NCBI GenBank assembly: GCA_025936755.1
Contig: JAICSS010000019.1
Coordinates: 1-52,486, forward strand
DNA length: 52,486 nt
Direction of reading: 5' to 3'
Origin: Solirubrobacterales bacterium
GTDB lineage: Bacteria; Actinomycetota; Thermoleophilia; Solirubrobacterales; 70-9
Shown: positions 24,523-35,366 of the stretch, in pieces
Numbering within the stretch: the stretch's first letter is position 1
Layout of the letters: every line of letters begins with the position of its first letter
Made by a program: the position numbers and the translations under genes
Notes under the pieces: generated by a model
Databases searched by the model: none
What the model saw: the letters and a program-made list of their open reading frames with translations, nothing else
Told to the model about the DNA's origin: nothing

Positions 24523-25452
24523 TTAGAGCAGGTGTGCGTAACGTCGGAGTCCAGCTTTATCCACGCCCCGACGAGCAAAAAAACGGAAGCGCCAAATGTC
24601 GGTACTGAACTGGCGTCGTCGCAAGATCCGGTAGGCATCCGACGCATCGTCGTCATCGGGAAACCGCAGGTGGCGCTGGGCGATCCAGCCGATCACATCG
24701 ACGAGTTGGATCAGCGGCTCCGCGTGGGACTCGGGGAAGCGGGGGAGGCCGTCGAAGAAAGACACCAAGTCGATGCCCGAGTTCGAAGAGCCGTGGGTGG
24801 TGAGGAGCGGGTGGCCGGCCTGCTGATAATCGACCGGCAGATCCAGAGCCATCGCGTCGGTGGCGAGAATTGGAAATAGGATACTGGTGAGCAGGCGCTC
24901 TCCATAGCGATCTTTAGCGTCGAAGAGCAGCTGAGGCGAGCACCAATCTTGGCGCCAGTGGCGACCTCGGTACCGTGAAATTGAAGCCTGAACGGCGTCG
25001 TGAACGTGGCGGGGCATGACAATTCCGTACTCGACAAAGGACGGGGAGGAAGCACCTCGGCGGAGCAGGCGGCGCACTTCATCGCCGCGCCCCGCATAGG
25101 CCGGGTGGGTAGAGCCGCGTTCCTGAGAAGCCTGCCAGGTCTTCTCGAAGATCGAGACCTGCTCATCTCGCCAGGGCTCAACCTCGGCCCCCGGGAAGAT
25201 CTCGTTATCGATTACGGTCGCGGTCCAGATCAGTTCCTGGTTGGCGAGGAAGATCGCGACCTCGCGCCGTTGATCTGCGTCTAACTTGGAGGCGTGCAGC
25301 TCCGACACTTCCCAACTGGCGCAGTGCGTCTGGACGAAAGCTGCAAGCACCGGACGCAGCGATGGCGGACACACCAGCGTCGTCAGGACCGAGCATTCAA
25401 ACGAGGTTCTCTGCAGAGCGAAAGACCCCGACTCATCAGTCGCATAGATCAC
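24523..25452 (-). CDS. DUF3800-like protein
   Basis: 309 residues. The opening IYATDESGSF and the later SELHASKLDADQRREVAIFL fit DUF3800, a family with an RNase H-like fold and conserved acidic residues that often sits in defence islands. Further acidic stretches (DAKDRYGERLL; LIQLVDVIGWIAQRHL) match the family's C-terminal pattern. The role is unproven; a nuclease-like function is plausible. It lies 12 bases after the DUF4145-like gene, forming a two-gene operon. Confidence 0.65.
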   Translation of the reverse strand: MIYATDESGSFALQRTSFECSVLTTLVCPPSLRPVLAAFVQTHCASWEVSELHASKLDADQRREVAIFLANQELIWTATVIDNEIFPGAEVEPWRDEQVSIFEKTWQASQERGSTHPAYAGRGDEVRRLLRRGASSPSFVEYGIVMPRHVHDAVQASISRYRGRHWRQDWCSPQLLFDAKDRYGERLLTSILFPILATDAMALDLPVDYQQAGHPLLTTHGSSNSGIDLVSFFDGLPRFPESHAEPLIQLVDVIGWIAQRHLRFPDDDDASDAYRILRRRQFSTDIWRFRFFARRGVDKAGLRRYAHLL

Positions 25453-25464
25453 CGCTCGAAGGCC

Positions 25465-26115
25465 TCAAGGATCGACAGACCGTTTCAGTGCTTCTTCTTT
25501 TCGTTTCTCGAACGCCGTACTCACCCGGATCAAATTGGCGGATCCCCGATAGAGGAAGTCAAGGAGAGCATCGATGAAGCCCCGGATCAATGGGACGTCA
25601 GCGTTCTCTACCTCAAGCTCCTTGAGGTGGCCGCCATAGTTGCGGTAGGTGTAGACAAGGTGGGCCTGTTTGACGAGCCCCTCGGGCACGCCGGCCTCCT
25701 GAATCAGGGCGTTCAATTGATCTCTCTGTGAGAGGTCCTGCGAGATCGCCTTATCAGCACAGATCGCTTCCAGCAGGCGGCCTGCGCGGACGGCGAATGC
25801 ATCCGGCGCGTGCTGGAGCTCCAACATCGCTAGATAGCGCTCTGCAATGGGACTAGGGAGACCATCCAGGGGTTTGTCCAGAGGAAAGATGATCTCGGGC
25901 TCAACCTCGTCGGACTCCATATAGCCATCGATCCATTGATATTCAGAGAGAGTTAGGCCCTTACAGCCAGTGCATCGATCAACCTGGGCTATGCGCTGCA
26001 CCGTGATCTCGTCCCAGCTGTCTCCGACCCGAATGGTCTGCGTCGCGCCGCTGAGGACCACGTGCCCCTTGCACTCGACCGTTCCCTCACGTCCACAGTG
26101 ACGACAGCGCTCCAT
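25465..26115 (-). CDS. DUF4145-like protein with N-terminal zinc ribbon
   Basis: Best start is ATG 26115 (216 residues), directly before MERCRHCGREGTVECKG; the open frame continues upstream without sense. Two CxxC pairs (CRHC at about 4-7 and CTGC at about 45-48) suggest a zinc ribbon. The C-terminal half (AVRAGRLLEAICADKAISQD, then LIQEAGVPEGLVKQAHLVYT) is DUF4145-like, a helical domain recurrent in restriction and defence proteins. Co-transcribed with the DUF3800-like gene and divergent from 26214-26765. Confidence 0.68.
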   Translation of the reverse strand: MERCRHCGREGTVECKGHVVLSGATQTIRVGDSWDEITVQRIAQVDRCTGCKGLTLSEYQWIDGYMESDEVEPEIIFPLDKPLDGLPSPIAERYLAMLELQHAPDAFAVRAGRLLEAICADKAISQDLSQRDQLNALIQEAGVPEGLVKQAHLVYTYRNYGGHLKELEVENADVPLIRGFIDALLDFLYRGSANLIRVSTAFEKRKEEALKRSVDP

Positions 26116-26213
26116 GACGCGACAGAGGCTATCGAGAACTGCGTGCGGCCCTGGACCAGCGGTTCCCTCAACAGCATCTGGGTTCGCGAAGGCTGGCGAG
26201 TACTCTCGTCGCC

Positions 26214-26765
26214 ATGTTGATAGTCGCCACGAGCGTTTGGACTGTAGTGGGCTCTCTCGGTGCAGCCATAGGTGGAATAGGTGCTGCTGTAGGAGGAGTG
26301 GCGGCATGGAGAGCGGCGAGCGCCAGCCGAGCAACTAGTCGTGACGCGATGGAAGCGCTCGGCTTGGCAATTGCACCTTCTCTAACTGGCGAGGCCGGTA
26401 TTTCCCCGATCCAGGATGGCTCCGATACCGGCACTTGGAAGGCGCGGATCTTCAACCTCTCCTCGCAATTCACGGCAACCAAGCTCCATTTCGAGGCTCG
26501 CTTCGAAGACGGAGAACGCGCTGACCAAGAACTTGAGCGGCTTGCACCAGGAGAGACCTGGGAAATCCCACTTCGGGTTATCGGGATGCCGCCAGGCGGG
26601 CCACTTCTCAGCGAGGCGGGTAGGACGTCGGTCCTACGCTACGCAGACGAGAGAGGAATTCTTAGATACGAGCAACACTTCGGTTTCGTCGGACGGAGAA
26701 ACCCTGACGGCTCATGGACACCTTCTGTGTCGATGATCCCGACCAGTGATGCTCGGAGGATCTGA
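26214..26765 (+). CDS. Membrane-anchored protein of unknown function
   Basis: 183 residues. An N-terminal glycine-rich hydrophobic segment (about 2-34, VWTVVGSLGAAIGGIGAAVG) is followed by a short charged helix and a soluble beta-rich domain (ARIFNLSSQFTATKLHFEAR, LAPGETWEIPLRVIGMPPGG) that looks like an Ig-like sandwich. No family recognised. It precedes the TIR-like gene by 72 bases on the same strand and could be its partner; this is position-based inference only. Codon use and GC are lower than in the flanking backbone. Confidence 0.55.
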   Translation: MLIVATSVWTVVGSLGAAIGGIGAAVGGVAAWRAASASRATSRDAMEALGLAIAPSLTGEAGISPIQDGSDTGTWKARIFNLSSQFTATKLHFEARFEDGERADQELERLAPGETWEIPLRVIGMPPGGPLLSEAGRTSVLRYADERGILRYEQHFGFVGRRNPDGSWTPSVSMIPTSDARRI

Positions 26766-26837
26766 TCCGTGGGTGGGTCGGTTGCCCCTGGATAGTTGCA
26801 TGAGCGCAGCAGCCGCGCCCCTGCTAAGAATCGGATC

Positions 26838-27977
26838 ATGGCAGAGGATCTTCTGAGCGAACTGCGGAGCTTTGCCGAGAATTTCAAGGAGACTGCAGCT
26901 AACGGGGAGTCACAAACGAAAGAGCCCCTTCGGGAGGTCATGGATGCGGCAGCGCAGATCGGCAAAGCCTGGTCAGGCTCGAACCTGGGATACCAGAGCC
27001 GCGTCTACTACGCCGGCCTCGAGTCGCCGCCGCCTGGAGCCCACTTTGATTCCGAGTGGGGTTTCCACGGCGTGTTCCAAGGCACCACGGGCGACTGGAG
27101 GGAGTTCGACTTCGACGCCGTCATTGCCGCGCTCTACGCCCTGAGCGGCCGCGAGAACCTCAACCCCGAGGCCGACCAAGCGACCGAGGCAACCGCCCTA
27201 CTGGAAGCAACTAAGCCCCAAGTCGTATCGGTCCTGCGTGCCTGGCTAGCGCAGCACGAGGACGCGCTAGTGGCGGAGCTTGCAGAGGAGGCTTCAAAAG
27301 TCGAAGCGATGAGCGAGCGAGCGGCGCTAACGGCGCTCGTCGGTCGGGGCGGCACGAAAATTACTCGCGATACGACGGCCCTCAGCCAAGGCTGGCAGGC
27401 TGCCCCCCATCAGGTGGTGGAAGCACGAGCGATCTCAATCCGCTCGTCCTTTCAGAGTTGCGAAAAACTCGCCAGCCTGGCGTCTCGCGCCGCCGACCAT
27501 ATCGCCCGTCTTGAGCTCTCACAGACCGCAAGAGGCCAAGTCCCAGTCGCAGCAGGCGAAAACGTTTTCATCGGCCACGGCCGCGCCGGTGCCTGGCGCG
27601 AGCTGAAGGACTTCGTCAGCGAACGCCTCTCCTTGCCTTGGGATGAGTTCAACCGCCTTCCGGTCGCCGGAGTGACCAACATCGCTCGCCTCTCAGAGAT
27701 GCTCGATCAGGCCGCGATTGCTTTCCTCGTCTTGACTGCCGAGGATGAGATGGCAGACGGCGGTGAGCGAGCACGCCAGAACGTTGTCCACGAGGCCGGG
27801 CTCTTCCAGGGTCGCCTTGGCTTCGCCCGGGCGATCCTCCTATTGGAGGAGGGCTGCGAGGAGTTTTCAAACATCCAGGGGCTCGGCCAGATCCGTTTCC
27901 CAGCAGGCAACATCGCCGCCTCCTTTGAGGAGATTCGCGGAGTCCTTGAGCGCGAGGGGTTCCTCGATGCCGTCTAA
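26838..27977 (+). CDS. TIR-like (PF10137-type) nucleotide-binding domain protein, candidate defence NADase
   Basis: 379 residues from ATG 26838 (an upstream TTG at 26796 is less likely). The C-terminal 130 residues match the TIR-like domain used as NAD-degrading effector in some STING/CBASS systems: NVFIGHGRAGAWRELKDFV, AIAFLVLTAEDEMADGGERA, RQNVVHEAGLFQGRLGF and then EEGCEEFSNIQG. The N-terminal part (about 1-240) is unrecognised and presumably senses the trigger. No CD-NTase or STING gene is adjacent. Likely abortive-infection protein, inferred from domain and neighbourhood. Confidence 0.8.
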   Translation: MAEDLLSELRSFAENFKETAANGESQTKEPLREVMDAAAQIGKAWSGSNLGYQSRVYYAGLESPPPGAHFDSEWGFHGVFQGTTGDWREFDFDAVIAALYALSGRENLNPEADQATEATALLEATKPQVVSVLRAWLAQHEDALVAELAEEASKVEAMSERAALTALVGRGGTKITRDTTALSQGWQAAPHQVVEARAISIRSSFQSCEKLASLASRAADHIARLELSQTARGQVPVAAGENVFIGHGRAGAWRELKDFVSERLSLPWDEFNRLPVAGVTNIARLSEMLDQAAIAFLVLTAEDEMADGGERARQNVVHEAGLFQGRLGFARAILLLEEGCEEFSNIQGLGQIRFPAGNIAASFEEIRGVLEREGFLDAV

Positions 27978-28024
27978 GGCTGCCCGGTCACTCAGCCCAG
28001 GTAGCGAGGGACCTTTGGCTGCAA

Positions 28025-28261
28025 TCAGGCTGCAGCGCGGCGAGCTCTACGGGCTCGTTTACTAGCCGGACGAGCGGGAGCCGCCTTGACCTGGATGATC
28101 TTCTGGGCACCACCGCCCATGCCGATGACGATGTCGCCGAGCGGACGATCGGCGAGCTCGATTAGTTTCTGCCGAAGATCCTCGTCGAGTTCCGATGAAT
28201 CCCAGACGGCTACGAAGCCGTCATGAAGCTCATGGCGGGTTGCTTTTTGCCTAGCTGCCAT
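28025..28261 (-). CDS. Small protein with basic tail downstream of the SIR2 gene
   Basis: 78 residues from ATG 28261, preceded by AAGGTGG. An acidic/helical first half (FVAVWDSSELDEDLRQKLIE, LADRPLGDIVIGMGGG) ends in a Lys/Arg/Ala-rich tail (KAAPARPASKRARRARRAAA) that might bind nucleic acid. No family recognised. It lies 54 bases after the SIR2-GAF-like gene on the same strand and is probably its operon partner, perhaps regulator, inhibitor or adaptor (inference). Confidence 0.6.
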   Translation of the reverse strand: MAARQKATRHELHDGFVAVWDSSELDEDLRQKLIELADRPLGDIVIGMGGGAQKIIQVKAAPARPASKRARRARRAAA

Positions 28262-28315
28262 CAATCCACCTTATACCCGCCGCCGGATGGGCTGACCACC
28301 TTGCGAGGCGTTTGA

Positions 28316-29869
28316 TCATCCGCTTCCTGCTTCGGATATGCCGTCGCCTGCTGGCGGCGAATCCCCTGCTTTTCCCTCTTCGCCGGCACCAATGACGGCC
28401 GCCACCAAACGCATTGCGACGCTCTGGAGCGCCGAATGCAAGGCGGCTTCGATGCCTTCGGGCAGCTTGGTTAGGACACTTGCCTTGCCAGGCCGATCCG
28501 AAGAAATGGTCAGAGCCCCGAGTGGCAGTCGCGTGGGCTCAGCCATGACTAGAGGCAGCCCTCTGACAAAGTGCCAGCGCGAGGCATAGGTGTCGCGATC
28601 GAACTCCATGATGGTCCCTTGGCAGAGGGTTCTGACCGAAACCCAGTTGCTTGCGGCGCCGAGCGGCACTGGGGTAACGGTGGAGGGGTCTTGGTGGGCG
28701 CGATCGCTGTGAGCCCACCCGACAAGTCCCGTTCCGTCCTCATCAAGTACCCAGACGGTCAGCGCCAACGTCTCCTCAACCTCAAGCCGTGCCAGCGAGA
28801 GCGTGTATAGAACAACGTCCTTAAGAAGGTCACGCAGCCCACTACTCAAGGCGACTTGGCGTTCCGCGAACCTCGACTGATCGCTCACGGCGAGGCCGCG
28901 CTCGAAACAACCGATAACTTCCCTGGCACGCTCGGTGACAGAGAGATAGTCAGCCGGGCCCACCTTTTTTCGGTGACCGACCTCGTAGAGGAACTGCGCG
29001 GCATCGGCGAAGTGGTCGACGAAAATCGCCTGTACGCCGCAGCGCCCCCAGCGCCGCCGTGCAGCCTCCTCCATTGCTGCGCGGACCGACGGTGATGCCT
29101 GTGGCTCGCCTTGGCGGACAAAGATTGCCGCGTGGCGTGGTTTCTCCGGGGCCTTATAGCCGTAGAGGTAGCGGATCAAGTTGGGATCGGCGAGGCTCAT
29201 GCCGACGAAGACGCAGGTCGAGCCATGAAGCCGCTCGGTTACTAGCTGCTCCTGCCAAGAGGTGCCGCGTTGCATGCGGTGGTAATGCTCCTCGGTCAGG
29301 ACGATCCCCTTCGGCGTTCCCTGACGACCAGCGAGACCGTGCAGATGGGTAACCGCGATGGTCCCGGCGGCTCGTTTGTGTGGTTCTCGATTCTGGGTGT
29401 AGGAGCGAATGTTGGTTCGGGCGGTGCCGGCGTCGATGAGGGCCTGCTCGAGAAGGTCGTCGTAGTTAGTGGTGAGGATCTCTGCCCGCTCGCCCCAGAT
29501 CTCGCGCAATGCTGCCACTTGGTGGGCAATCGGGCCGGGGGCAAAAGCCTCAGCACCGCGTCCTTCGTACAGCTCCGCGGGGATCAACTCCTCGAGCCTC
29601 TCTTTGGCCATCACTCCGACTACCGCCCCAGCGCCGAGCAGATCGTCCCGCTCGATCGTCGCGGCCACCCAGTTCGCCCGCTCCCCATTTTCTAGGTCTG
29701 GTAACTCGACGGCGACCCTCTCAAGCAGCTGTTCGATCAGCGCGCGCCAGCTCGGCAAACCCGCCTCCATCGAGGCGCCAGCGCCGACGAGTAGGGTCAA
29801 CTCGCCGGCGGAAGCGAGCCGCTCTATCAACGGTTCGACCTCAGGCTGGGCAAGAGAGGCAAAGCTCAT
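28316..29869 (-). CDS. SIR2-family protein with GAF-like C-terminal domain, candidate defence NADase
   Basis: 517 residues from ATG 29869 (an upstream in-frame start is less likely). The SIR2 part (about 1-290) has LTLLVGAGASMEAGLPSWRA, EILTTNYDDLLEQAL and THLHG, the NAD-binding and His motifs of the SIR2_2 type found in Thoeris- and Avs-type effectors. The C-terminal part (about 330-490) has a helix bundle and a beta-rich GAF-like domain (TLALTVWVLDEDGTGLVGWA, RLPLGALTISSD), a likely ligand sensor. Fusion of NADase and sensor suggests a one-protein abortive-infection system. Overlapping palindromes lie just upstream. Confidence 0.82.
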   Translation of the reverse strand: MSFASLAQPEVEPLIERLASAGELTLLVGAGASMEAGLPSWRALIEQLLERVAVELPDLENGERANWVAATIERDDLLGAGAVVGVMAKERLEELIPAELYEGRGAEAFAPGPIAHQVAALREIWGERAEILTTNYDDLLEQALIDAGTARTNIRSYTQNREPHKRAAGTIAVTHLHGLAGRQGTPKGIVLTEEHYHRMQRGTSWQEQLVTERLHGSTCVFVGMSLADPNLIRYLYGYKAPEKPRHAAIFVRQGEPQASPSVRAAMEEAARRRWGRCGVQAIFVDHFADAAQFLYEVGHRKKVGPADYLSVTERAREVIGCFERGLAVSDQSRFAERQVALSSGLRDLLKDVVLYTLSLARLEVEETLALTVWVLDEDGTGLVGWAHSDRAHQDPSTVTPVPLGAASNWVSVRTLCQGTIMEFDRDTYASRWHFVRGLPLVMAEPTRLPLGALTISSDRPGKASVLTKLPEGIEAALHSALQSVAMRLVAAVIGAGEEGKAGDSPPAGDGISEAGSG

Positions 29870-29887
29870 CGTTCTTGAGCCAGAGCC

Positions 29888-29904
29888 ACCACGTGGTCGA
29901 CCAC
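29888..29904. promoter_or_regulatory. Overlapping palindromes upstream of the SIR2 gene
   Basis: ACCACGTGGT (29888-29897) and the perfect 12-bp palindrome GTGGTCGACCAC (29893-29904) overlap by five bases, ending about 19 bases before the SIR2 start. They probably form an operator for this gene. The rest of the 29905-30143 gap shows only weak promoter-like sequence (TTGCGA at 30105-30110) toward the nuclease gene. Confidence 0.45.
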
Positions 29905-30143
29905 AATCACCGCTAGAAGGCAACCACGCTCGGAGTGATCAGTCACCGGCATCCCGGCTTCGGCCAGTGGATTCCGCGTGCGCGATGCTCCTCCTCGGTT
30001 GACTCGATCCTCCCTTCCCCGACCGATCCATCACCCGATCTTAGGTCTTGCAGAGGACGGGGCGAGCCAACTTAGGCGTGATTCGCGAATCTCGTCGTTC
30101 CCATTTGCGACCACCGTCGGACTTGTAGAGATATGCTGGTCGC

Positions 30144-31235
30144 TTGGAGGCACCACCGACTCCGGTAACCCGACCTCGAAGAAGATTCGGACCCAAGGAT
30201 CTGCGGGACCTTACCCGTCCGCAGAAGCGCAAACTGGCACAGGTTGTGCTCACTGAGCCTGGGGCGCGGATCGTCGACTACAACCATCCTGCGGGTTACG
30301 ACGAATTCGTACTTGAGGTGTTCCCACTCTGGACTCGCCGACGACTCCGAGCCCGGGTGATGACTGCGCCCTTGACCCAGAAGGATGTTGATCGTCTGGC
30401 CCAGCGCGTAACCGAAGAGGGGGACGCGGAAGGGCTCATCCTTGCGGTGCATGATTCGAGTACTCCTCAGCTTGACTTTCCTTCCCAGGTGTCCGTTGTC
30501 AATGCTTCTGAATTGATTGCGCGCCTCGAGCGATCCGCCCTTATCGGCTGGAGAGACAGAAAACCATCTCCCTCCTACGACTTACTCGCCACCCAGCGAG
30601 TTCTTGATCGAGACGCCTCCTTCCTCGATCCTGTCGGCATCCGCTGGCTACCAACGTTGGCGCTAAACGAGCTGCCGTTGGATCTCAGAGATGGCGACCT
30701 AGAACCACAGGACGCCCTGGAGCGCTTAGCTTTCCGCTTGTTAACTTCGGTCTTTAGATTTGGCGGAGAGAGGTACGGAGAGGCGAAGCGAGGACAACGA
30801 TTGCCCGATGCCTTACTCACCTTCCAGGCTAAAGATCTGACTCTCGTTGGCGTACTTCTTGATTGCAAGGCAGCAGCCAGTGGATACACGATGGAGAGTG
30901 ACCACGAACTACGCTTTCATCAATACGTTTCATCATTGGCACCGGAACTCGCCGAGCGAGGTATTGCACTCCGCTACGTCGCCGTTTTGTCATCGTCGTT
31001 CCCAGGTCGATCAGGGCGTCGGCATCCTTTCCATGCCAGGAACAAGAAGATGATGGAAAAGGTTGGAGTGCAGCTTTCTTATCTGCGTGCGGTTGACTTC
31101 GCACGAGCGGCGGCTTTCGTCATTTCCAAAGAACTCTCTCCCGCAGCCCGTGAAGGCTTAGATTGGGACATGGTCTTCAGCACGGGCCTTGTGACCCAGG
31201 CTGACCTTCCTTCATTGATTGTCGAGCCTCTATAA
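30144..31235 (+). CDS. Two-part PD-(D/E)XK nuclease-like protein, first gene of a Qat-like operon
   Basis: 363 residues from TTG 30144; no ATG or GTG is available nearby. The N-terminal part (about 50-140) resembles an Mrr-like endonuclease fold without clear catalytic residues (VEVFP-like strands, WTRRRLRARVMTAPLTQKDV, VSVVNASELIARLE). The C-terminal part has an intact PD-(D/E)XK arrangement: RLPDALLTF with D222, then VGVLLDCKAAASGYTM with D240-x-K242, after an LERLAFRLLTSVFRFGGERY helix. It is probably a DNA endonuclease. The stop abuts the next gene's ATG with no gap. In canonical Qat this place is held by the ATPase QatA. Confidence 0.72.
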   Translation: MEAPPTPVTRPRRRFGPKDLRDLTRPQKRKLAQVVLTEPGARIVDYNHPAGYDEFVLEVFPLWTRRRLRARVMTAPLTQKDVDRLAQRVTEEGDAEGLILAVHDSSTPQLDFPSQVSVVNASELIARLERSALIGWRDRKPSPSYDLLATQRVLDRDASFLDPVGIRWLPTLALNELPLDLRDGDLEPQDALERLAFRLLTSVFRFGGERYGEAKRGQRLPDALLTFQAKDLTLVGVLLDCKAAASGYTMESDHELRFHQYVSSLAPELAERGIALRYVAVLSSSFPGRSGRRHPFHARNKKMMEKVGVQLSYLRAVDFARAAAFVISKELSPAAREGLDWDMVFSTGLVTQADLPSLIVEPL

Positions 31236-31928
31236 ATGGGCACGTCGACCTCATATAGAGCTCCTAGTGTTCCTCGCTGGCAAGCCTTCGTCGTAGCCTT
31301 TCAGCAGGGTCTACCCCTTGAGCGGGTCCGTTCCGAGTTGTTCAACGCTGGCGACGATTGGGAAAACGCTCTAGCGGCATCTGGAGTTGGTGCGTTCGCG
31401 GCAGCAATCGCCCAAGCCTGGGAGACGCTTCCTGATCGTCTTCAGGCTCAGGATCGGCCCGAGGCCGCGATTCTCGCCCTAGCTTCTGAGGCTCGCCACG
31501 CGGCAGCCCACGAGGAGCCAACTGCCGCGCTGGCTTTAGCTGAGCGGGCTTTCACCGCCATCCTCAGTCGGACTGCCAGCGGCGAGGAAGCACTAAGCGC
31601 AAGAAGCGCCGAGAGCGCCGCAGCAGAGTTCACGCGGGCAAGGACGGAAGCACCACAGCGTCTTGTCGGCGCTTACCTCCAGGAGTTGCTGGGCCAATAC
31701 GCCAAGCATGTCGCCTCCCGCGAGACGGGCACCCTTACGGAAGGCCCAAGCCCTTTGCGCGTTGGAGAGATCCGCCCGCTCATACGCCAGCTTGCCGAAA
31801 GTGCCGAAGCTACCGCCGAGGGGGTCGTCAATCCAGGCGCTACGCCCGACGAGGTGAAGAACCGCTGGGCCAGCATAATTCGCGAGGCCTTCGCTCGCGG
31901 GCGCACGATTCCAGAGGGCCCCCAGTGA
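31236..31928 (+). CDS. QatB-like protein with MGTS N-terminus
   Basis: 230 residues, mostly alpha-helical and Ala/Glu-rich. The N-terminus MGTSTSYRAPSVPRWQAF resembles the MGTS-x-S opening of QatB proteins, where a flexible Gly-start tail precedes a helical body. The next gene is a QueC/QatC-like enzyme overlapping by four bases (GTGA). QueC-like enzymes of defence loci have been reported, as I recall, to attach a deazaguanine to the N-terminal glycine of such partners; Gly2 here would be the acceptor after Met removal. The QatB call rests on the N-terminus and gene order, not a full alignment. Confidence 0.65.
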   Translation: MGTSTSYRAPSVPRWQAFVVAFQQGLPLERVRSELFNAGDDWENALAASGVGAFAAAIAQAWETLPDRLQAQDRPEAAILALASEARHAAAHEEPTAALALAERAFTAILSRTASGEEALSARSAESAAAEFTRARTEAPQRLVGAYLQELLGQYAKHVASRETGTLTEGPSPLRVGEIRPLIRQLAESAEATAEGVVNPGATPDEVKNRWASIIREAFARGRTIPEGPQ

Positions 31929-33226
31929 AGCGTTTTTCGGTCGTGGTCAATGACTGTGCAGCACCTGAAGTACCGGGCATCCTCCACGTACGAAGCCAAG
32001 ACACCGCATACGGAGAAAAGAACTTTCTGCTCCGATATGACGAGCTCGCAGAAGGCCTCCCGCGGCAGCTAGTCGATCGGGAGCTTGATCTTCTCGAAGT
32101 AGCCGGTCACCTCTTCGCGACTGACATTGCGTGCGAGCGCGGGGCGGGAGATGTTGAGTGGAACCGTGCCATCAAAGTGTGGCTGCCGGTACGGAACCCG
32201 GACTACTGGACGACCCAGCGGGCTGTTATTGAGGGAGTGTGGACGGACCTAACTGGTGATGACATCGAAATCAGGTTTGAGCAGGCTACTGATCCTTTGG
32301 AAGCTCCTCGAATGGCCAAAGCGCCATTTCCGAACCACGACGGGATCGCTCTACTTTCTGGCGGCCAGGATTCCTTCGCTGGAGCCCTTGACCTCTTGGC
32401 ACACGGCCACCATCCTCTCTACCTCTCCCATGTGGCAAGTGGAGCTACCAGTTCCGCTCAGAAATCGGTCGAGGCCCACTTGAGAAAGCGGCCGGAACCC
32501 CAAGTGAAGCGCCTAAAGCTGTCTGCCCGAAAAGCTCCTGGCAAGTACTTTCCCGGCCAAGAGTCGTCTCAACGCAGTCGGACCTTCCTCTTTCTAGTCG
32601 CCGCAAGCGTAGTCGCCTCAGTAGGTGACAGCGCAAAGGTTTGGCTGAATGAGAACGGAGTCATGGCTCTGCACCTTCCCCTTACTCCTGCTCGCATTGG
32701 AAGCTTGTCGACTCATACCGCAGCGCCCCCAATCCTGAGCCGCATTGAAGCGCTAGTTGGCGATGTCCTCGGCAAGCCGACGGCTTTGGAGAACCGGCTG
32801 GTTGGCCTGACCAAGCCCGAGGTCATCGAGTTAGCAGTGTCCCTCGGTGCTAAAGACGAGATGCAGGATACGGTTTCATGTTGGCAGATCGGCCGAACCC
32901 GAGAGCACTGTGGTATTTGCGCGCCTTGCATCCTCCGTCGTGTGTCTTGCGAGGCCCATGGAGTCCCAGATGTCCAATATGCGGCCGATGTTTTCGACGA
33001 CTCCTCTGCACTGGATGACCCCAAGGCTCGGGACAACCTCGGGCATATGGTTTCTCTTATTCAGGACCTCAAGGAGCTCTCCGACGTAAACTTGGAGTAT
33101 GAGTACCCGGAGCTTCTTGGTGGACAGCCGATCCTCTCTCTAAGTGAATCGATTGCTCTTCACCGACGCTGGGCAGATCAAGCTGCCGCCGTTCTGTTCC
33201 GGCATTCTGTACCTAAGAACCTTTAA
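31925..33226 (+). CDS. QueC/QatC-like PP-loop ATPase
   Basis: 433 residues from GTG 31925. An N-terminal domain of about 135 residues, absent from housekeeping QueC, precedes the PP-loop ALLSGGQDSFAGAL (S145-S150). The C-terminal zinc site is C319, C329, C332, C335 (SCWQIGRTREHCGICAPC), the same spacing as QueC. QueC makes 7-cyano-7-deazaguanine from carboxy-deazaguanine with ATP and ammonia; defence-linked relatives (QatC, CBASS Cap9) use the chemistry differently. No queuosine-pathway gene (queD, queE, tgt) is nearby, favouring a defence role. TAATG junction with the next gene. Confidence 0.85.
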   Translation: MKRFSVVVNDCAAPEVPGILHVRSQDTAYGEKNFLLRYDELAEGLPRQLVDRELDLLEVAGHLFATDIACERGAGDVEWNRAIKVWLPVRNPDYWTTQRAVIEGVWTDLTGDDIEIRFEQATDPLEAPRMAKAPFPNHDGIALLSGGQDSFAGALDLLAHGHHPLYLSHVASGATSSAQKSVEAHLRKRPEPQVKRLKLSARKAPGKYFPGQESSQRSRTFLFLVAASVVASVGDSAKVWLNENGVMALHLPLTPARIGSLSTHTAAPPILSRIEALVGDVLGKPTALENRLVGLTKPEVIELAVSLGAKDEMQDTVSCWQIGRTREHCGICAPCILRRVSCEAHGVPDVQYAADVFDDSSALDDPKARDNLGHMVSLIQDLKELSDVNLEYEYPELLGGQPILSLSESIALHRRWADQAAAVLFRHSVPKNL

Positions 33227-33834
33227 TGACCCATATTACTTACGGCATCTTCCGTGCAGGCGTTCGCGACCCAGGCAAAACCCTGGCCTCATACACGGGC
33301 CAAAAACCGATACCGACGCCGTATCCAAGCGCAAGTGCATCAATCACCCGCTTCCACCGCGAGGGTCCTGACCAAGCTTGGAGCGTTCTAGATCAAGCGC
33401 TTTCATCAAGCTCCTACTGGGGAAGACCTGGGACTCCACAGGCTGGTTGGGCGAATGCGATACGAGAATGCTTTCAGGTGTACCGCGCTCTTGCTGAGCA
33501 AGACCAGCGGGTATCGATTGCGACCGGCGTCAACCGAGAACTCGTGCTTCCGCCTGATGACATTGGTGTCTATGTAGATGTGGTACTCCTCGACCCAAAT
33601 GGTTACTCACCACGTGTCGTTCTCTGGGATTCTAACCCCCTCACCCATAGCCGGGCCGTACTGTATGGAGCTCCTGTGTGGAGAGCCATGGAGGAAGAGA
33701 TGGGCGAAGGCCGAATCGTGGGGGTCGAAATCTGGAAGCTGCGAACCGGCGATCGAGAGTTGGTGCTACCGGCTGAGGCGGAAGCGGCCATGCCGGAAGT
33801 TGTTCAGATTGCTCGCCGAATAGCTGGCCCCTAG
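33226..33834 (+). CDS. Unrecognised fourth protein of the Qat-like operon, possibly a diverged nuclease
   Basis: 202 residues from ATG 33226, sharing one base with the QatC-like stop. I do not recognise a named family. The middle (IGVYVDVVLLDPNGYSPRVV, then LWDSNPLTHSRAVLYGAPVW, and GRIVGVEIWKLRTGDRELV) has the strand order of a PD-(D/E)XK nuclease with D near VDVVLLD and W-D-S-N where ExK is expected; the missing Lys makes activity uncertain. It takes the place of QatD (a TatD nuclease) in canonical Qat. The call is inference from pattern and position. Confidence 0.6.
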   Translation: MTHITYGIFRAGVRDPGKTLASYTGQKPIPTPYPSASASITRFHREGPDQAWSVLDQALSSSSYWGRPGTPQAGWANAIRECFQVYRALAEQDQRVSIATGVNRELVLPPDDIGVYVDVVLLDPNGYSPRVVLWDSNPLTHSRAVLYGAPVWRAMEEEMGEGRIVGVEIWKLRTGDRELVLPAEAEAAMPEVVQIARRIAGP

Positions 33835-33840
33835 AGACCG

Positions 33841-34978
33841 CTAGCCCACGGTCTCTCTCACGAGATCATGGCTCCGTCCCACCGGATGCGTGTACCGCGC
33901 AAGCATGGTCTCGACCGATGACCTGCAATCTCGGCTAGGTCCGCATCATCTACACCTGAGGCTCGTAAATGCGTGACGTAAGAGTGGCGGCACTCGTGGG
34001 GGCGAATATCCAAGCCGGAGGCTTCTTGGGTCGGCTTCCAAAGGTCCCGGTAGAAGGTGCGCTCGCGCCAGAGGCGGCCGCGGGGCGTTGGGAAGAGGAG
34101 CTGGCAGTCGGGGCCGTTGAGGTTGATCTGCACTTCGAGCATCCAAGCGAGGGTCGCTGGCACCGGGACGATGCGACCAGCGTCGGGCTCGCCGTGGTCA
34201 ATCTTCGTGCCCTCGAGGATCTGGCCCTCGTGGGCGGTGCGGCGGACTTGGAGGGTTTCGCCGTCGAAGTCTTCGCGGCGTAGGGGCAGCACCTCCCCCA
34301 GCCTCAGACCGCAGTCGGTGAAGACCCGGACCATCGCCTCGTAGCGGCCAGCCGCCTTTGCGAAGCGGTGCATCTCCTCGAAGCTGAGGACGCGGATCGG
34401 TCTTGGCTTCCTCTTCGCTCGCGGGTCGTTGGCTCGGATGCGGATGCCCTTGAAGGGGTTGAGGTCGCAGACTTCATCGGTGATCGCGTCCTCGGCCATC
34501 GCTGAGAGGGCGCGGAGGATGCCTACGGCCCCGGTGGTTGCGCGACCTTCGGTCCTGAGGATGTGGTCGACCAGGGCGAGCGTGTGGCGGCGGCGCAGCT
34601 CGCGCAGCGACCAGTCCTCAGCGGGATGCCCTCGATCTCAACGTTGGCAACTCGGCTGATGCGGTGGTCGTTCGTTGCGTTCGTGCGCTCGGATCGCGGG
34701 TGGCGCTCGGTCCAGGTGGCGGCGTAGTCGCCGAGGGTGTCCGGCCGATCCGAGAGTCCGTATGGCTCGTCGATGGCTTTCTGCGCATCGGCCCTCCGCC
34801 GAAAGGTGCCTCTGCGACGGTTCCAGGTGGGCTTCGCGATGTGGCGCTTCAGGCACGAATTCGGAGGGGTCGCTCCTATGGCCCGATACACCGGCCCAGA
34901 TGGCAATGTGAAGTAACGCCTCTGAGAATCAACGGTGTGCTTGGGAAAAACAGAGAACGAACCTGCCGTCCGTTGCAT
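33841..34978 (-). pseudogene. Tyrosine-type integrase with two frameshifts
   Basis: The product reads across three frames. The N-terminal and core-binding part lies at about 34620-34978 (WNRRRGTFRRRADAQKAIDE, TLGDYAATWTERHPRSERTN). Near 34616 a G seems lost from a GGG run, shifting to the frame of 33925-34615 (DWSLRELRRRH, DCGLRLGEVLPL with the first catalytic Arg, HECRHSYVTHL with HxxR). Near 33911-33918 a 4-base tandem unit (TCGG) seems deleted; the last part, ETMLARYTHPVG with the nucleophilic Tyr, is read in another frame to the TAG at 33841. Sequencing error is possible for either shift. It explains how the island arrived and suggests it is now stuck. Confidence 0.8.
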
Positions 34979-35001
34979 AGGCGGCGACTATCATCGCCGG
35001 C

Positions 35002-35217
35002 ATGAGCAAGCGGTCCGTCCTCATCGTTGTGTTGCTACTTGCCATCGCCGGCTGCACGATCGCGGTTGTGTTGCAGGGCGAAGGGGACTACCTGCTCGGG
35101 GCGCTGGTCGCGGTGGGTATTTGGTCCCTGCTCGGGCTGGCCTTGATGATGCGCTGGACGATCAGCTTGCAGTTCTGGGGAGCCGTCGGGAACTGGCTCC
35201 GAGGTCTCTGGCGCTAG
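35002..35217 (+). CDS. Small two-helix membrane protein
   Basis: 71 residues from ATG 35002. Two hydrophobic segments (about 6-24, VLIVVLLLAIAGCTIAVVL, and 31-52, LLGALVAVGIWSLLGLALMM) end in a basic, Trp-rich tail. The IAGC at about 14-17 resembles a lipobox, but the second helix argues for a plain membrane protein. No family recognised. It sits between the broken integrase and the tRNA-Glu gene, at the very edge of the island. Confidence 0.5.
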   Translation: MSKRSVLIVVLLLAIAGCTIAVVLQGEGDYLLGALVAVGIWSLLGLALMMRWTISLQFWGAVGNWLRGLWR

Positions 35218-35270
35218 CCGACCTGGCTCTGCACCGCGCAATGCGCGGCACGGGCCGGAACACCAAGGAA

Positions 35271-35366
35271 TGCGCCCGACGGGAGTCGAACCCGCGACCT
35301 TCGGCTTGAAAGACCGACGCTCTTTGGGCCCCCGAAAGGACCCGTTGACCACTGAGCTACGGGCGC
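35271..35366 (-). tRNA. tRNA-Glu (anticodon TTC) with an inserted hairpin in the D-loop
   Basis: Minus-strand cloverleaf: acceptor GCGCCCG/CGGGCGC, D-stem GCTC/GAGC, anticodon stem TCGGT/GCCGA with loop CTTTCAA, T-stem GCGGG/CCCGT with loop TTCGACT, discriminator A, no encoded CCA. The D-loop is about 31 bases instead of 8: after AGTGG comes TCAAC, a 6-bp hairpin GGGTCC-TTTCGG-GGGCCC (35326-35343) and AAA. The gene is 96 bases rather than about 73. It may be a decayed gene, one with a processed insert, or an unusual functional form. Confidence 0.8.
35296..35312. repeat. Candidate right attachment site (attR) inside tRNA-Glu
   Basis: GACCTTCGGCTTGAAAG covers the tRNA anticodon loop, 3' anticodon stem and variable region, a known crossover position for tyrosine integrases. 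It matches 24433-24449 at 16 of 17 bases in the same orientation. Confidence 0.45.

What the first reader, a model, noticed from the sequence alone, without database searches (positions are those of the whole stretch)
30144..33834. Four-gene Qat-like operon with a PD-(D/E)XK nuclease in place of QatA and without QatD
Seen: the genes abut or overlap (TAA|ATG, GTGA, TAATG), so they are one unit. Order is nuclease (D222, D240-x-K242), MGTS-start helical protein, QueC/QatC-like PP-loop enzyme with Cys zinc site, and an unrecognised 202-residue protein. Known: canonical Qat is QatA (P-loop ATPase), QatB, QatC (QueC-like), QatD (TatD nuclease). Here no Walker motif and no TatD metal site is present, so a different effector pair surrounds the QatB/QatC core. 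Inference: an undescribed Qat-type subtype in which a modified QatB controls a restriction-type nuclease.
Basis: partly seen in the sequence, partly recalled or inferred. Interest (0 to 1): 0.92.

Follow-up and report, generated by a model that had tools for sequence, protein, structure and literature searches.

The report
Qat-type defence operon with swapped nucleases
A conserved four-gene bacterial operon keeps the QatB/QatC core of a known anti-phage system but carries a FokI-like DNA-cutting protein and a Cas4-like protein where the usual QatA and QatD should be, so it looks like an undescribed version of that defence.

Summary
Four abutting or overlapping + strand genes lie at 30144-33834: NucA, QatB-like, QatC, Orf4. 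The same order, bounded by unrelated genes, occurs in four other actinobacterial genomes at 32-62% protein identity, so it is one unit. QatC is a true QatC by profile and keeps every catalytic residue mapped from the solved P. aeruginosa QatC. QatB keeps the MGTS start and P-x-W motif and has a weak profile match to QatB. No QatA or QatD is present.

NucA is an inactive-looking Mrr-type domain fused to a FokI-type cleavage domain (FokI Z 18.3) with an intact D222/D240/K242 site. The 'unrecognised' fourth protein is a Cas4/AdnA-type PD-(D/E)XK fold (Z 13.2) that keeps His and two Asp but has lost the lysine. So two PD-(D/E)XK-fold proteins replace the ATPase/TatD pair around the QatBC core.

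Best reading: an undescribed Qat variant in a tRNA-Pro island, in which QatC modifies the QatB N-terminus and this complex controls or assists a FokI-type nuclease. The control step and phage protection are inference. Four of five host genomes lack recognisable QueE and QueC, so the conjugated molecule is unlikely to be host-made CDG. A new variant of a known kind.

The parts
30144..31235 (+). NucA, 363 aa, TTG start: inactive-looking Mrr-type domain plus FokI-type nuclease domain; occupies QatA's position
   Evidence: homologues in 4 other operons
30177..30587 (+). NucA N-terminal domain (about res. 12-148), Mrr/MspJI-type restriction fold with no conserved catalytic Lys, probably non-catalytic
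   Evidence: VIA Z 9.8 AspBHI, 9.6 MspJI, 9.5 AF1548; alignment; weak Pfam NA-iREase1 hit in one homologue
30609..31208 (+). NucA C-terminal FokI-type cleavage domain (about res. 156-355)
   Evidence: Foldseek FokI E 1.6e-8; VIA Z 18.3 over 183 residues to FokI, 14.7 Nt.BspD6I; Pfam FokI_cleav_dom weakly in 3 of 5 homologues
30807..30869 (+). NucA active site D222 ... D240-C-K242, invariant in 5 of 5
31236..31928 (+). QatB-like helical protein, 230 aa, MGTS N-terminus and conserved P-x-W segment
31236..31247 (+). MGTS N-terminal motif (Gly2 would be the modification site)
   Evidence: invariant in 5 of 5; same motif in canonical QatB (PMC13279940)
31925..33226 (+). QatC, QueC-like PP-loop enzyme, 433 aa
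   Evidence: PADLOC QatC 3e-58; NCBIfam QatC 1.1e-62, 212 bits, under its 280-bit cut-off; PDB QatC 9zee 1.8e-47
32357..32374 (+). SGGQDS pyrophosphate loop, S145-S150
32708..32719 (+). S262-T263-H264-T265; T263 and T265 match QatC T278/T280
   Evidence: PMC13279940
32879..32929 (+). Zinc cysteines C319, C329, C332, C335
33226..33834 (+). Orf4, 202 aa, Cas4/AdnA-type PD-(D/E)XK fold; H44, D118, D135 invariant, catalytic Lys replaced; occupies QatD's position
   Evidence: model pLDDT 87.9; Foldseek ACE1 1.5e-6; VIA Z 13.2 AdnA over 197 of 202 residues; alignment
24523..35366 (.). Lower-G+C island (0.57-0.66 against about 0.70-0.75 outside) next to tRNA-Pro, holding this operon, TIR and SIR2 defence-type genes and a broken integrase; ends approximate

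Best explanation
This is an undescribed variant of the Qat anti-phage system. QatB and QatC form the conserved core: QatC, an ATP-using PP-loop enzyme, binds QatB and activates or attaches a small molecule at QatB's N-terminal glycine (MGTS). In place of QatA (KAP ATPase) and QatD (TatD nuclease), the operon encodes NucA, an inactive-looking Mrr-type domain joined to a FokI-type cleavage domain, and Orf4, a Cas4/AdnA-type PD-(D/E)XK fold lacking the catalytic lysine. Most likely NucA cuts DNA when its cleavage domains are brought together, as in FokI, on the modified QatBC complex or on invading DNA, and Orf4 acts as a non-catalytic DNA-end or single-strand binder that directs or restrains it. 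Shown here: operon conservation, QatC identity and active site, predicted folds of NucA and Orf4, absence of QatA and QatD. Inferred: QatB modification (by homology), nuclease activity, the control link, phage defence.
For: QatC matched by PADLOC, NCBIfam and solved QatC; residues S145, D149, S150, R219, T263, T265, C319, C329, C332, C335, read from the HMMER alignment to 9zee, are invariant in five operons. QatB MGTS and P-x-W are invariant as in canonical QatB, plus a weak profile match over the C-terminal helices. Four-gene order in five genomes, 32-62% identity, unshared flanks. NucA C-domain is FokI-like by structure with an invariant D-D-K site; Orf4 is AdnA/Cas4-like. The five QatC form one fully supported group apart from all sampled canonical QatC (100/100). 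In P. aeruginosa, QatBC alone protects against some phages, and Gly2 and the QatC active site are essential (PMC13279940). Island setting with TIR and SIR2 genes.
Against: QatB homology is weak by sequence: no PADLOC or Pfam hit, hhalign probability 34%. QatC scores under the NCBIfam QatC cut-off. QatA and QatD are largely dispensable in the P. aeruginosa system against some phages, so NucA and Orf4 may be accessory rather than the effector pair. Structures are AlphaFold2 models from only five sequences. No functional data.
Confidence: 0.5

Rival explanations
1. QatBC is itself the defence effector, as in P. aeruginosa where QatBC suffices against some phages, and NucA and Orf4 only widen or regulate the phage range.
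For: PMC13279940 shows QatBC alone defends and QatA/QatD affect range. A QatB-QatC pair with no QatA, QatD, NucA or Orf4 beside it lies between BREX/Pgl-like genes in another actinobacterium (L014).
Against: NucA keeps an intact FokI-type active site in all five loci, and in the five complete loci all four genes travel together, which suggests that the nuclease matters.
Confidence: 0.28
2. A restriction-like system in which NucA is a stand-alone DNA-targeting nuclease, its Mrr-type domain recognising modified or foreign DNA, and QatBC provides self-protection (a modification or antidote) rather than activation.
For: The N-domain is nearest to domains of the modification-dependent enzymes MspJI and AspBHI, and the C-domain to type IIS FokI. 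QueC relatives serve DNA modification pathways.
Against: The matched ranges are the Mrr-type catalytic domains of those enzymes, not their recognition domains. No DNA methyltransferase or DNA transglycosylase gene is in the operon. QatC keeps the Thr pair and the conserved loop before it that contacts QatB in the solved complex.
Confidence: 0.12
3. A toxin-antitoxin or abortive-infection module in which unmodified QatB restrains NucA and infection releases it to cut host DNA.
For: Tight operon with overlapping genes; a FokI-type domain without an evident sequence-recognition domain could be toxic; it lies beside TIR and SIR2 genes.
Against: No direct evidence; the Qat mechanism downstream of QatB is unknown.
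Confidence: 0.1

Closest known systems
Qat (qatABCD) anti-phage system
   Same: QatC with QatC catalytic residues and zinc site; MGTS-start helical QatB; same gene slots (x-B-C-y), overlapping genes
   Different: KAP ATPase QatA replaced by a FokI-type nuclease protein; TatD nuclease QatD replaced by a Cas4/AdnA-type fold without catalytic Lys; shorter QatB tail; deep separate QatC group
Type IV CBASS Cap9 with its CD-NTase
   Same: QueC-family enzyme with a partner protein that starts M-G and is modified at Gly2
   Different: No CD-NTase in the operon; QatC-type Thr pair instead of the Tyr/Asp CDG-binding pair; QatC N- and C-terminal extensions
FokI / Nt.BspD6I (type IIS and nicking restriction enzymes)
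   Same: Cleavage-domain fold and D, D-x-K active site (NucA C-domain)
   Different: An Mrr-type domain is fused at the N-terminus instead of FokI's recognition domains; encoded with QatBC and without a methyltransferase
Cas4 / AdnA / ACE1 PD-(D/E)XK nuclease family
   Same: Whole-length fold of Orf4, and conserved His-Asp-Asp
   Different: Lys of the D-x-K motif replaced (N, N, E, A, P); no Fe-S cysteine cluster

Membership tests
Qat system | QatC with SGGxDS loop, Thr pair, QatC-type zinc cysteines and terminal extensions | tested here: met
   below the NCBIfam cut-off (212 of 280 bits) but with all mapped catalytic residues
Qat system | QatB: helical protein with MGTS N-terminus and P-x-W tail motif | tested here: inconclusive
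   Motifs met; homology of the helical part only weak (probability 34%); no PADLOC hit
Qat system | QatA KAP-family P-loop ATPase in the operon | tested here: not met
   only a distant KAP-like 980-aa frame on another contig of the genome
Qat system | QatD TatD-family nuclease in the operon | tested here: not met
Qat system | Protection against phage dependent on QatB Gly2 and the QatC active site | not testable with these tools
   needs plaque assays
FokI-type nuclease (NucA C-domain) | FokI cleavage-domain fold with D, D-x-K active site | tested here: met
FokI-type nuclease (NucA C-domain) | FokI-type sequence-recognition domain | tested here: inconclusive
   The N-domain's own best matches are Mrr/MspJI-type domains; the list does not exclude others
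Cas4/AdnA-type PD-(D/E)XK nuclease (Orf4) | Whole-length fold | tested here: met
Cas4/AdnA-type PD-(D/E)XK nuclease (Orf4) | Complete catalytic set with Lys in the D-x-K motif | tested here: not met
   H44, D118 and D135 invariant but position 137 is N/N/E/A/P; assignment by position in the predicted strands

The most novel reading that the evidence does not exclude
QatBC is a portable N-terminal-modification switch that has been fitted to several different effector modules. Here it gates a FokI-type nuclease through a dead Cas4-like adaptor, using a conjugated molecule other than CDG, since most hosts of the operon show no QueE or canonical QueC gene.
Probability: 0.3. Interest if true: 0.8.

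Novelty: new variant of a known kind. Interest (0 to 1): 0.62.

Why it matters
How QatB modification leads to phage restriction, and what QatC attaches, are stated as open questions (PMC13279940). A Qat variant with a well-understood nuclease type (FokI) in the effector slot gives a directly assayable output and shows that the QatBC core is modular. The absence of recognisable QueE and QueC in most hosts bears on which molecule QatC conjugates.

Tried and rejected
NucA as a diverged QatA, or Orf4 as a diverged QatA or QatD: hhalign found nothing. NucA and Orf4 as paralogues of each other: no profile similarity. Sequence profile search of NucA, QatB and Orf4 against the PDB: nothing significant; only structure prediction revealed the NucA and Orf4 folds. 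Viral-contig scans with QatC, NucA and Orf4: no relatives. Phage records: only two distant QatC-like hits in Listeria phage records. First genome-contig scan with the single QatC sequence found nothing; the three-sequence alignment then found two new loci. Att-site repeat of the tRNA-Pro region elsewhere in the window: none of 14 bases or more. Orf4 outside the operon: none in 396 genomes of the phylum. NucA outside it: only two broken fragments.

Full report
Observation. The window encodes four + strand ORFs at 30144-31235, 31236-31928, 31925-33226 and 33226-33834, which abut or overlap exactly as described. The stated residues D222, D240/K242 and S145-S150 are correct.

Conservation. A search of the window's own family found a 62% identical QatC in one genome of the same genus, and the phylum search found a 52% one in another family. 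A scan of 84,980 species genomes with a three-sequence profile added a Nocardioides MAG and a groundwater MAG. In all five genomes the order NucA-QatB-QatC-Orf4 is kept on one strand. Pairwise comparison of about 16-28 kb around each locus found no shared gene outside the four. Between the window and its congener, third codon positions differ about twice as often as first and second positions in all four genes, as expected of genes under purifying selection. The unit is therefore exactly these four genes. It is rare: among 396 genomes sampled evenly from the phylum, QatC by profile occurs in 8, two of them of this type, and Orf4 occurs only in this operon.

QatC. It matches the PADLOC QatC model at 3e-58, the NCBIfam QatC model at 1.1e-62 but below its cut-off, and solved QatC 9zee at 1.8e-47. 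Reading that alignment with the numbering in PMC13279940 gives S156/D160/S161 = S145/D149/S150, R233 = R219, T278/T280 = T263/T265, and zinc cysteines = C319, C329, C332, C335; all are invariant in the five operons. F237 falls at F223, which is conserved only as an aromatic or aliphatic residue. A tree of 19 QatC puts the five in one group with 100/100 support on a long branch; its place among canonical QatC is unresolved.

QatB. All five start MGTS and share S-x-R-x-P-x-x-P-R-W; canonical QatB start MGTS with a P-x-W further on in most. In P. aeruginosa, Gly2 and the tail segment with P16 and W18 are essential (PMC13279940). Profile comparison of the helical part gives only a weak match (probability 34%, E 4e-4). 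I take it as QatB on position, motif and partner, and mark the fold homology as unproven.

NucA. The AlphaFold2 model (pLDDT 79) has two restriction-type domains. The C-terminal one aligns to FokI at Z 18.3 over 183 residues, then Nt.BspD6I (Z 14.7) and R.BspD6I2 (Z 12.9); Foldseek E for FokI is 1.6e-8. Pfam's FokI model hits three of the five proteins weakly (best 0.0059). D222, D240 and K242 are invariant. The N-terminal one resembles Mrr-type domains of AspBHI, MspJI and AF1548 (Z about 9.5-9.8) but has no conserved catalytic lysine. NucA is unrelated to QatA by profile.

Orf4. The model (pLDDT 87.9) matches Cas4-family ACE1 at E 1.5e-6 and the AdnA nuclease domain at Z 13.2 over 197 of 202 residues, then Dna2, MGME1 and Cas4. 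H44, D118 and D135 are invariant, but the position two after D135 is N, N, E, A or P. It is probably a non-catalytic or altered member. It is unrelated to QatD by profile.

Setting. G+C falls from about 0.70-0.75 outside to 0.57-0.66 between about 24 and 35 kb. The stretch ends at tRNA-Pro (35271-35366) beside a frameshifted tyrosine integrase, and holds a CAP12-type TIR protein and a SIR2 protein. The Nocardioides and groundwater loci also lie near tyrosine-recombinase-like genes, named by eye; the congener's lies beside an OLD-like ATPase and a UvrD-like helicase, also named by eye. These look like mobile defence islands.

Mechanism. From PMC13279940: QatBC is a complex that suffices for defence against some phages, and the QatC active site and QatB Gly2 are essential. 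The present operon keeps these features, so QatB modification is the best inference. NucA supplies a plausible DNA-cutting output, with a cleavage domain that in FokI works as a dimer (established knowledge); Orf4 may guide or restrain it. Nothing here tests the link.

CDG question. QueD (PF01242) is absent in 6 of 10 QatC-bearing genomes tested. A QueC above the family cut-off and the only credible QueE hit occur only in the Nocardioides MAG. Four of five hosts of this operon, and a complete genome with canonical Qat (G389), thus lack recognisable CDG synthesis, although four of the five operon hosts have TGT. This agrees with the doubt raised in PMC13279940 from the Thr pair. Limits: several genomes are MAGs, the QueE model is the B. 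subtilis type, and salvage is not excluded.

Literature. The held library has six papers naming both QatB and QatC; the titles and the two papers read describe no such gene set, and a search for QueC-like with FokI found none. PMC13329287 finds qatA near only 34% of its QatC cluster, so non-canonical contexts were visible, but its main text does not describe them. Preprints and most subscription papers were not searched.

Noticed in passing
genomes G000, G037, G235, G441 and canonical-Qat genome G389: QatC-bearing genomes that lack recognisable QueE and canonical QueC genes (all but G000 also lack QueD), which argues that QatC does not use host-made CDG.
   Followed up: partly
L014:8771-10944 (minus strand; genome G072): A QatB-QatC pair (MGTSSRWPGP... 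then QatC) with no QatA, QatD, NucA or Orf4, lying between two roughly 1300-aa BREX/Pgl-like genes (named by eye): QatBC apparently embedded in another defence locus.
   Followed up: partly
L032:4864-7197 (Natrinema sp. DC36 plasmid): An archaeal QatC-like gene with two short upstream genes, one starting MGSAS, and no QatA or QatD; a possible minimal or different QueC-based system.
   Followed up: no
window 33858-34978: Tyrosine integrase broken by frameshifts beside tRNA-Pro (35271-35366); the island is probably no longer mobile on its own. No att repeat found in the window.
   Followed up: partly
window 26796-27977 and 28316-29923: CAP12-type TIR protein and SIR2/ThsA-like protein next to the operon, convergently oriented, each without an obvious signal-producing partner nearby.
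   Followed up: no
L026:219-1052 and L025:3412-4170: Broken NucA fragments without QatB, QatC or Orf4 beside them in two other actinobacterial genomes, suggesting decay of once complete operons. The first genome (G091) also has a QatC/QatD fragment on another contig (L045).
   Followed up: partly
L009:1072-4267: An OLD-like ATPase/TOPRIM protein and a UvrD-like helicase near the congener's operon, looking Gabija-like (named by eye, not scanned).
   Followed up: no
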